This document shows positions 2,724-3,308 of a stretch of DNA of 64,000 bases, piece by piece; the stretch's first letter is position 1; each line of letters starts with the position of its first letter. The notes below the pieces were generated by a model. It did not search any database and had not been told where the DNA came from. It worked only from the letters and a program-made list of their open reading frames with translations. The position numbers and the translations under genes were made by a program. The DNA is from Burkholderia sp. MS389 (GTDB lineage Bacteria > Pseudomonadota > Gammaproteobacteria > Burkholderiales > Burkholderiaceae), in contig NZ_CP045994.1 in NCBI RefSeq assembly GCF_016899425.1, positions 1,302,001-1,366,000 of the forward strand. The letters run 5' to 3'.

Positions 2724-3057
2724 GCCGGGGTGATGAAATTGGTAAACATAGCGGACTTAAACGATTGAGTGCCCGGCCGGAAACGGTCGGTGCAGAACCC
2801 TTCAAATTCGGCGAAACCCCTGATGTGCGCATCGAGGCAACGCCGAGCCAAGCCTCGCGGCATCCGCGAGGAAGGTGTAGAGACTAGACGGGGGGCGCCT
2901 AAGGCGCATGGGCAGCGGTCATGCCCGCGCGCGACGGTGAAGGCATAGTCCAGCGCACGAACGGCTCGCGTACGCGACGCCGGCTTTGAAAGAAGCAGTG
3001 TGACGAAAATCCGCCGCCTTAACTGGCTTGCCGGTTCGAGTCCGGTCCCCGGCACCA
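2724..3057 (+). tRNA. tRNA-Leu(UAA), interrupted by a group I intron
   Basis: The 5' exon (2724-2758) begins with acceptor strand GCCGGGG. The 3' exon (3006-3057) ends CCCCGGC, discriminator A and an encoded CCA. Joining the exons gives an 87-nt tRNA with anticodon arm GCGGA-CTTAAAA-TCCGC, anticodon UAA, a long class II variable arm, and a T arm with TTCGAGT in the loop. Split reading is required: the anticodon stem halves lie 247 nt apart in the DNA. The break falls between anticodon bases U34 and A35, the position used by the tRNA-Leu(UAA) intron of cyanobacteria and chloroplasts. A strong terminator follows at 3095. Confidence 0.95.
2759..3005 (+). ncRNA. Group I intron (IC3-like) inside tRNA-Leu(UAA)
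   Basis: This is a 247-nt self-splicing-type intron. The 5' exon end ACTT pairs with GAGT in the intron, giving the U-G pair at the splice site, and the last intron base is G. P2 is CCGGCCG (2773-2779) with a GAAA tetraloop and CGGTCGG (2784-2790). P4 is TCGGCG (2808-2813) with CGCCGA (2841-2846). A P5/P6-region hairpin is CTCGCGG-CAT-CCGCGAG (2854-2870). P7, the guanosine-binding helix, is GACTA (2882-2886) with TAGTC (2946-2950). From memory, the cyanobacterial tRNA-Leu intron has the same layout with different pairs in P4 and P7, so the helices appear to covary. No homing endonuclease is encoded. Confidence 0.93.
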
Positions 3058-3094
3058 TCGATTGCGTCGACGCGATTCGATTCAACGAAGGCGT

Positions 3095-3135
3095 AAAAAA
3101 CCCGCGAGAAATGCAGCGCTCGCGGGTTTTTTATT
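3095..3135 (+). terminator. Rho-independent terminator after tRNA-Leu
   Basis: The arms AAAAAACCCGCGAG (3095-3108) and CTCGCGGGTTTTTT (3119-3132) are perfectly complementary around a 10-nt loop and end in a T tract. It lies 38 nt after the tRNA CCA. Confidence 0.92.
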
Positions 3136-3308
3136 TGGCGCACGCACATGCAGCGGCGCGTCCGCGCCGCTCACGATGCGCTTCACTGCGCCGAAAACCG
3201 CGCCATGTGATACTGGTACGCACGTCGCACCGGACGCTTGCGTCGCCACCGGCCAACGCGTCCCGCCGACAGCCTTCACATCGTTTGCCTCTCGCAAGAC
3301 CATCCGTC

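What the first reader, a model, noticed from the sequence alone, without database searches (positions are those of the whole stretch)
2724..3057. tRNA-Leu(UAA) with a cyanobacterial-type group I intron in a betaproteobacterium
Seen directly: split anticodon stem halves, an encoded CCA, and a 247-nt insert with P1, P2 (GAAA loop), P4 and P7 pairings, a splice-site U-G pair and a terminal G. Known from the field: introns at this exact U34/A35 position are the classic tRNA-Leu(UAA) introns of cyanobacteria and chloroplasts, while the well-studied betaproteobacterial case (Azoarcus) is in tRNA-Ile. Either this lineage inherited or gained the Leu-type intron, or it came by transfer between distant groups. 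The P4 and P7 pairs seem to differ from the cyanobacterial ones while keeping pairing, which would favour a functional, long-established ribozyme. How widespread it is in Burkholderia I cannot say.
Basis: partly seen in the sequence, partly recalled or inferred. Interest (0 to 1): 0.78.

Follow-up and report, generated by a model that had tools for sequence, protein, structure and literature searches.

The report
Burkholderia tRNA-Leu gene with self-splicing intron
The window holds the only gene found in this genome for the tRNA that reads the leucine codon UUA, split by a small self-splicing (group I) type intron; the element is real, was present in each genome of the genus that was searched, and belongs to a known kind of intron.

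Summary
Rfam's group I model matches at 35.7 bits, E 1.9e-7, below its curated cut-off of 50, so default scans miss gene and intron. Covariation supports the fold with its P3/P7 pseudoknot. None of 67 typed tRNA genes is another Leu(UAA), so UUA reading should depend on splicing. 65 of 65 genomes of the genus (Burkholderia) carry it. "Cyanobacterial-type" holds for the insertion site only: cyanobacterial introns form their own clade (100/100), Burkholderia ones group with Paraburkholderia and kin (99/79; 93/81), though a joint clade with cyanobacteria is not rejected (AU p 0.16, 0.29). Same-site introns occur in alpha-, beta- and gammaproteobacteria, Bacteroidota and cyanobacteria; 62 of 399 genomes of the order have a related intron, in several tRNA genes. 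Verdict: real, ordinary in kind. The breadth, and an HNH endonuclease-like gene in five gammaproteobacterial versions, are the better leads.

The parts
2724..2758 (+). 5' exon of tRNA-Leu(UAA), ends in U34 (C32 U33 U34)
   Evidence: ARAGORN -i
2759..3005 (+). group I intron, 247 nt, last base G (omega G)
   Evidence: ARAGORN -i; RF00028 E 1.9e-7; own covariance model R1, which was built with this sequence included, 120.3 bits at 2795-2951
3006..3057 (+). 3' exon of tRNA-Leu(UAA), starts with A35, ends in encoded CCA
   Evidence: ARAGORN -i
2755..2770 (+). P1: 2755-2760 paired with 2765-2770; splice-site U2758-G2767 pair
   Evidence: pairs set out; U-G in 41 of 41 rows of A1
2773..2790 (+). P2: 2773-2779 with 2784-2790, GAAA loop
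   Evidence: 6 of 7 pairs with changes on both sides, 94.1% of cells paired
2798..2895 (+). P3: 2798-2803 with 2890-2895 (encloses P4-P6)
   Evidence: 6 of 6 pairs with changes on both sides across 61 introns, 100% of cells paired
2808..2846 (+). P4 2808-2813 with 2841-2846; P5/P5a 2819-2825 with 2830-2837
   Evidence: P4 99.2% paired, P5/P5a 72.7%
2847..2876 (+). P6 2847-2849 with 2874-2876; P6a 2853-2860 with 2864-2871
   Evidence: P6a 81.6% paired in A1
2882..2950 (+). P7 (guanosine-binding helix) 2882-2886 with 2946-2950, pseudoknotted with P3
   Evidence: 99.3% of cells paired, 3 of 5 pairs with changes on both sides
2898..2937 (+). P8 2898-2899 with 2936-2937 plus variable extension (2904-2932)
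   Evidence: extension helices paired in 51.5-93.5% of cells in A1
2955..3001 (+). P9 2955-2958 with 2998-3001, enclosing P9a/b (2962-2982) and P9c (2983-2996)

Best explanation
A tRNA-Leu(UAA) gene interrupted after U34 by a small ORF-less group I ribozyme. Inferred steps: the pre-tRNA is transcribed; the intron folds into P1-P9, with the 5' exon CUU held by GAG of the guide in P1; a guanosine bound in P7 attacks after U34; the freed exon attacks after the terminal G; the exons join to a tRNA with anticodon UAA. Since no other gene for this tRNA was found, splicing should be required to read UUA codons. The intron was probably present in the ancestor of Burkholderia, Paraburkholderia and allies, is inherited vertically in Burkholderia, and was lost (or gained) in some sister genera.
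For: Exact gene and intron call; RF00028 E 1.9e-7 (5). Covariation: in 41 Burkholderia-type and near genes 94.0% of cells paired, 39 of 87 pairs changed on both sides, 0 of 500 shuffles as high on five measures, slid controls at most 43.5% paired; across 61 introns of wide origin P3 100% and P7 99.3% paired, with changes on both sides in 6 of 6 and 3 of 5 pairs. 67 of 67 RF00005 matches of the genome typed, none Leu(UAA); the pattern GGACTTAAAATCC with up to 1 mismatch finds only Leu(CAA) and Sec genes; the intron model R1 finds no second intron of this kind in the genome. 65 of 65 genomes of the genus have a full-length match, 82-100% identity. The 29 rows of Burkholderia and allies are one side of a branch, support 99/79 and, without 14 long or odd rows, 93/81 (44, 46, 80). 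Splicing shown in a related kind: the Bartonella tRNA-Arg(CCU) group I intron splices in vivo and in vitro (PMC7717549, passages).
Against: No RNA evidence of any kind was available. The score is below Rfam's gathering cut-off. One of five covariation measures on A2 (further pair types) is reached by 39 of 500 shuffles. UUA is rare (4 of 14,251 codons in a rough ORF set of the window), so the demand on splicing is small. The fold was drawn by hand on the window's own sequence, which by itself favours it over slid versions (note in the description of the counting tool). The support values of the 29-row group are not starred.
Confidence: 0.95

Rival explanations
1. The intron was acquired from cyanobacteria (or a plastid) by homing into the same tRNA-Leu(UAA) site.
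For: Same insertion point and P1 pairing; holding Burkholderia-type and cyanobacterial rows together is not rejected (AU p 0.161; p 0.287).
Against: The 12 cyanobacterial rows are one side of a branch with 100/100 support; the Burkholderia type lies in a starred set of 76 rows (98/94) of proteobacterial and Bacteroidota introns without cyanobacteria; same-site introns are widespread in between.
Confidence: 0.05
2. Dead intron: the gene is a pseudogene and UUA is read by another tRNA.
For: UUA is rare; the Rfam score is modest.
Against: Present in 65 of 65 genus genomes, helices kept by compensatory changes, acceptor and T stems 100% paired in A1 with changes on both sides, no other Leu(UAA) among 67 typed genes.
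Confidence: 0.02
3. The Burkholderia intron is a separate, later gain within Burkholderiaceae rather than an old inheritance with losses in sister genera.
For: Betaproteobacterial Leu(UAA) introns as a whole are not one clade (AU p 0.0267); the genus codes g5 (2 of 14 with intron) and g6 (6 of 13) are mixed, and g3 shows an empty site in 14 of 14.
Against: Introns of Burkholderia, Paraburkholderia and allied genera form one group, and filled and empty sites lie at the same place: intron-less L090 has the same upstream gene (73.5% identity; LacI-type by eye, no family search) as intron-bearing L272, L273, L277 and L278 of the same genus code g6 (66-73%).
Confidence: 0.2

Closest known systems
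[quoted passage not shown] primary papers recalled, not held)
   Same: Same tRNA, same insertion point in the rows compared here, same P1 pairing of CUU with GAG
   Different: P3, P4 and P7 sequences differ with pairing kept; separate clade in the tree
Betaproteobacterial tRNA-Ile(CAU) introns: Azoarcus (review passage PMC3984707), Acidovorax and Burkholderia tRNA-Ile2 (PMC8450103, passage)
   Same: Same catalytic core motifs in the CAU introns fetched here; same class of host bacteria
   Different: Other tRNA and other place in the anticodon loop (33/34 or 36/37); separate clades in the tree. The published sequences themselves were not compared
Gammaproteobacterial tRNA-Leu(UAA) introns of a Beggiatoaceae genome and Thiomargarita (PMC4853749, passage)
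   Same: Same tRNA interrupted by a putative group I intron
   Different: Another class; the gamma rows fetched here, one Rhodanobacter excepted (L159), fall apart from the Burkholderia type and from the main betaproteobacterial groups; five gamma copies carry an HNH-type ORF
Alphaproteobacterial tRNA-Arg(CCU) introns incl. Bartonella BbgpI (PMC7717549, passages)
   Same: tRNA group I intron in an un-annotated tRNA gene; shown there to self-splice
   Different: Other tRNA; Arg(CCU) introns fetched here sit at 36/37

Membership tests
Group I intron (Rfam RF00028) | Covariance-model match | tested here: inconclusive
   35.7 bits, E 1.9e-7 over the whole model, but gathering score is 50
Group I intron (Rfam RF00028) | P3-P9 core with the P3/P7 pseudoknot | tested here: met
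   P3 100% and P7 99.3% of cells paired across 61 introns, with compensatory changes; 0 of 500 shuffles as high on four of five measures, 39 of 500 on the fifth
[quoted passage not shown]
   U2758-G2767 and G3005; U-G in 41 of 41 rows. In 153 of 153 parsed Leu(UAA) introns the exon ends GGACTT and the intron ends in G, partly by construction: boundaries were slid to T and G
Group I intron (Rfam RF00028) | Guanosine-initiated self-splicing | not testable with these tools
   needs RNA
tRNA-Leu(UAA) | Cloverleaf with long variable arm, UAA anticodon, CCA | tested here: met
   ARAGORN on the joined exons
Cyanobacterial tRNA-Leu intron lineage | Falls within or next to the cyanobacterial clade | tested here: inconclusive
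   Best trees place it apart; AU does not reject a joint clade (p 0.161; 0.287)
Subgroup IC3 | Subgroup-specific peripheral and core features | not tested
   The label IC3 for Azoarcus and Synechococcus pre-tRNA introns was seen in a reference title (PMC3984707); that it fits here is a resemblance of the core by eye

The most novel reading that the evidence does not exclude
Small tRNA group I introns are a persistent, mostly overlooked and mobile feature of proteobacterial anticodon loops: one lineage is fixed in Burkholderia, sister lineages have moved between tRNA genes (Leu UAA to Leu CAA; also Ser, Thr, Arg, Asn and CAU tRNAs), and an HNH endonuclease encoded antisense in P6a, or free-standing beside the tRNA gene, drives homing into tRNA-Leu(UAA).
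Probability: 0.35. Interest if true: 0.6.

Novelty: new member of a known kind. Interest (0 to 1): 0.4.

Why it matters
A tRNA gene that looks essential for reading UUA is invisible to default scans here, because a curated cut-off and an intron-blind tRNA search skip it. Its presence in each genus genome searched, beside clean empty sites in sister genera, makes the old question of gain, loss and mobility of bacterial tRNA introns testable on culturable relatives, and the HNH-bearing versions offer a possible mobility mechanism.

Tried and rejected
Default ARAGORN and Rfam gathering scans gave nothing, a limit of settings and not evidence of absence. The other matches (His, Leu and Trp leaders, sRNAs, 3052-3200) are all below their gathering scores and lie around a terminator-like hairpin (about 3100-3133, by eye, loop of about 10; the scan, which allows loops of 3-8, found no terminator and no promoter).

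Twin ribozyme idea: five gammaproteobacterial loci gave two core hits each. Reading L115 and L152 showed one intron split by an insert; L115 has an antisense HNH-type ORF there and the other four loci match it over its full length. Rejected.

75 were parsed as Leu(UAA) introns of 202-401 nt. Not among these: the five HNH-bearing ones, called at 682-697 nt, and L119, L186 and the cut-off L178, found by R1. Of the other 35, 24 hold an intron-less Leu(UAA) gene in the stretch, mostly with TTGAG following by chance; 7 are SAR11 (Pelagibacteraceae) stretches; 4 (L167, L171, L172, L211) were not resolved. Of the SAR11 stretches L125 was read and holds only a 5' tRNA fragment; L125, L134 and L198 have Rfam tRNA matches elsewhere, not typed, and R1 found nothing in any of the seven. 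Not counted as introns.

ARAGORN misnames some introns (Phe aaa, Ser aga, Pro cgg, Val tac, Asp gtc and others); junctions were corrected by rule or by my reading. Two model hits stay untyped: L338 (G223:C60) and L087 (G180:C30). Rows dropped: a false Ala call in L239; L254 (unsure end), L164_2, L239_2 and all but ten of the Burkholderia rows before the first tree (138 rows left); 14 long or odd rows before the second (124 rows). A first synteny check used a wrong frame for the downstream neighbour, corrected; with the right frame the downstream gene was matched only in loci of the own genus.

Papers: four primary papers on cyanobacterial and gammaproteobacterial introns that I asked for are not held and are recalled only. 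Searches for a report of the Burkholderia Leu intron; none seen in the listings (two were empty). The library holds open-licence papers only, so this is no proof of absence.

Full report
Check of the observation. With introns allowed, ARAGORN calls one tRNA in the window, Leu(taa) at 2724-3057 with a 247-nt intron between gene bases 35 and 36, tRNA position U34/A35. Without introns it finds none, and Rfam at gathering scores finds nothing in the window. At relaxed threshold RF00028 aligns end to end at 2749-2961 with 35.7 bits and E 1.9e-7 in a 601-base stretch, and is the one RF00028 match at E <= 0.001 in the genome (E 5.7e-7). So the element is real, and below the curated cut-off. The boundary could slide by up to 3 bases without changing the spliced product; the U-G pair and the terminal G decide for U34/A35. 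[quoted passage not shown] the cyanobacterial rows parsed here fit 34/35 by the same rule.

Structure. I drew P1-P9 on the gene and counted the pairs on 41 aligned genes, 37 of Burkholderia and allied genera and 4 of other betaproteobacterial lines (A1): 94.0% of 3460 cells paired against 87.3% in shuffles, 39 of 87 pairs changed on both sides, 0 of 500 shuffles as high on any of five measures; versions slid by 1-3 columns fall to 35.2-43.5% paired. P7 and four of the six P1 pairs do not vary in this set, so they say nothing there. On 61 introns of wide origin (A2) P3 is 100% and P7 99.3% paired with many compensatory types (P7: third pair C-G or G-C, fourth U-A or C-G, fifth A-U, U-A, C-G or G-C). 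P5/P5a is only 72.7% paired there, and in A1 P6a 81.6% and the P8 extension 51.5-93.5%: these outer parts are variable. One of the five measures in A2 (further pair types) is reached by 39 of 500 shuffles.

Need for splicing. The own genome (7.75 Mb, 3 contigs) has 67 RF00005 matches; all 67 lie in fetched loci and were typed: Leu CAG 3, GAG 2, CAA 1, TAG 1, no Leu UAA. A pattern search for an intron-less anticodon arm with up to one mismatch finds only a Leu(CAA) and a Sec gene, and the intron model R1 finds no second intron. In a rough set of 35 long ORFs of the window UUA makes 4 of 14,251 codons. That splicing is needed for UUA is therefore inferred from the gene list, not shown.

Distribution. 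Genus: 65 of 65 genomes have a match over query bases 1-334, 82-100% identity (counted from the listing). The genus is Burkholderia: contig G453:C4 and the named record NZ_CADFEI010000004.1 (Burkholderia sp. BCC1644) have the same length, 485,599 bases, and hold the gene at the same place; the species of the window was not determined. Family: of 150 genomes drawn (read from the listing, which is cut off at the weak end), genus codes g1 (15 of 15), g177 (11 of 11) and g164 (8 of 8) all have full-length matches, g6 has 6 of 13 and g5 2 of 14. The other 7 of g6, 11 of g5 and 14 of 14 of g3 show the two exon halves side by side, that is, an empty site; one g5 genome is unclear. In g4, 4 of 13 have a full-length match at only 68-69% identity; the one of these in the tree (L073) falls with the Achromobacter-type rows. 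In g6 the empty site of L090 and the filled sites of L272, L273, L277 and L278 share the same upstream gene (LacI-type by eye). Near matches on plasmid records are 9 Mycetohabitans and 3 Candidatus Vallotia records.

Wider kin. These are not frequencies. A covariance model of the core (R1; it includes the window's sequence) finds one intron in the own genome and at least one in 62 of 399 genomes drawn from the order, 46 of 158 genera (strict filters lose some weak ones, and a few weak hits are not checked). Among the hits whose host gene was read, after correcting ARAGORN's misnamings by the junctions, are tRNA-Leu(UAA), Leu(CAA), Ser(UGA), Thr(UGU), Arg(CCU), CAU tRNAs at two places (33/34 and 36/37) and Asn(GUU); some CAU and Asn assignments rest on my reading of the exons, and two hits stay untyped (L338, L087). 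The Burkholderia genus itself also has, in single genomes, a Thr(UGU) (L244), an Arg(CCU) (L245) and CAU introns (L246, L247).

Tree. With 138 introns and 220 columns the Burkholderia, Paraburkholderia and allied rows (29) are one side of a branch at 99/79; the 12 cyanobacterial rows at 100/100. Without 14 long or odd rows: 93/81 and 100/100. The set of 29 was named after the first tree was seen. Holding it together with cyanobacteria is not rejected (p 0.161; p 0.287). Betaproteobacterial Leu(UAA) introns as one clade are rejected weakly (p 0.0267), and all Leu(UAA) introns as one clade more firmly (p 0.00472). The Leu(CAA) introns fall among Achromobacter-type Leu(UAA) introns (supports 85/77 and 87/74, not starred), which suggests movement between the two Leu genes. 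Some 215 columns cannot settle deep order.

Mobility lead outside the window. Five gammaproteobacterial Leu(UAA) introns (L115, L144, L152, L182, L212) are called at 682-697 nt and hold, on the opposite strand, a stretch that matches the 154-codon ORF of L115 over its full length (65-71% identity); in L115 and L152, which I read, it lies in P6a. The L115 protein matches Pfam HNH_3 at E 4.8e-4, below the curated cut-off (20.2 against 24.8 bits). Homologues at 45-50% identity lie 74 and 197 bases from the intron-bearing tRNA-Leu gene in two betaproteobacterial loci, L072 and L080. The window's own gene with some 1.5 kb either side (L001, L067) shows no such match. Homing is my inference.

What is known. 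[quoted passage not shown] tRNAscan-SE 2.0 reports tRNA-Ile2 introns in Acidovorax and Burkholderia (PMC8450103, passage). [quoted passage not shown] The Azoarcus pre-tRNA-Ile intron has crystal structures (PMC3984707, passage). The Bartonella tRNA-Arg(CCU) intron splices in vivo and in vitro (PMC7717549, passages). A gammaproteobacterial tRNA-Leu(UAA) intron paper of 2002 is recalled, not held. I saw no report of the Burkholderia Leu intron in ten searches, which cover open-licence papers only.

Verdict. A real and very probably working group I intron, perhaps undescribed as such but of a known kind; interest moderate, mainly for its breadth and for the mobile relatives.

Noticed in passing
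L115:2308-2772 (minus), also L144, L152, L182, L212: Antisense HNH-type ORF of 154 codons inside P6a of gammaproteobacterial tRNA-Leu(UAA) introns of about 690 nt (ORF listed in L115, full-length matches in the other four).
   Followed up: partly
L072:1891-2337 and L080:864-1304: HNH homologues (45-50% identity) 74 and 197 bases from intron-bearing tRNA-Leu(UAA) genes, possible collaborative homing.
   Followed up: partly
L244, L245, L246, L247 (Burkholderia genus genomes G430, G456, G437, G436): Further group I introns in tRNA-Thr(UGU), tRNA-Arg(CCU) and CAU tRNAs in single Burkholderia genomes.
   Followed up: partly
L249, L250, L251: Introns in tRNA-Leu(CAA) at 34/35 with C instead of U before the splice site, nested among Leu(UAA) introns in the tree.
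   Followed up: partly
L261:9560-9631 against the gene at 2414-2748: A partial 3' copy of the tRNA-Leu gene (86% over 72 bases) about 7 kb from it in G432, as an island attachment site would leave.
   Followed up: no
plasmid records NC_014718.1 and NZ_CP047397.1 among 12: Matches to the window's tRNA-Leu gene lie on large second replicons of Mycetohabitans (9 records) and on 66-72 kb plasmids of Candidatus Vallotia (3 records, one over most of the gene).
   Followed up: no
G164 (L086, L251, L340, L343): One genome of the order with four matches to the intron model, two of them in Leu genes and one in tRNA-Ser(UGA).
   Followed up: partly
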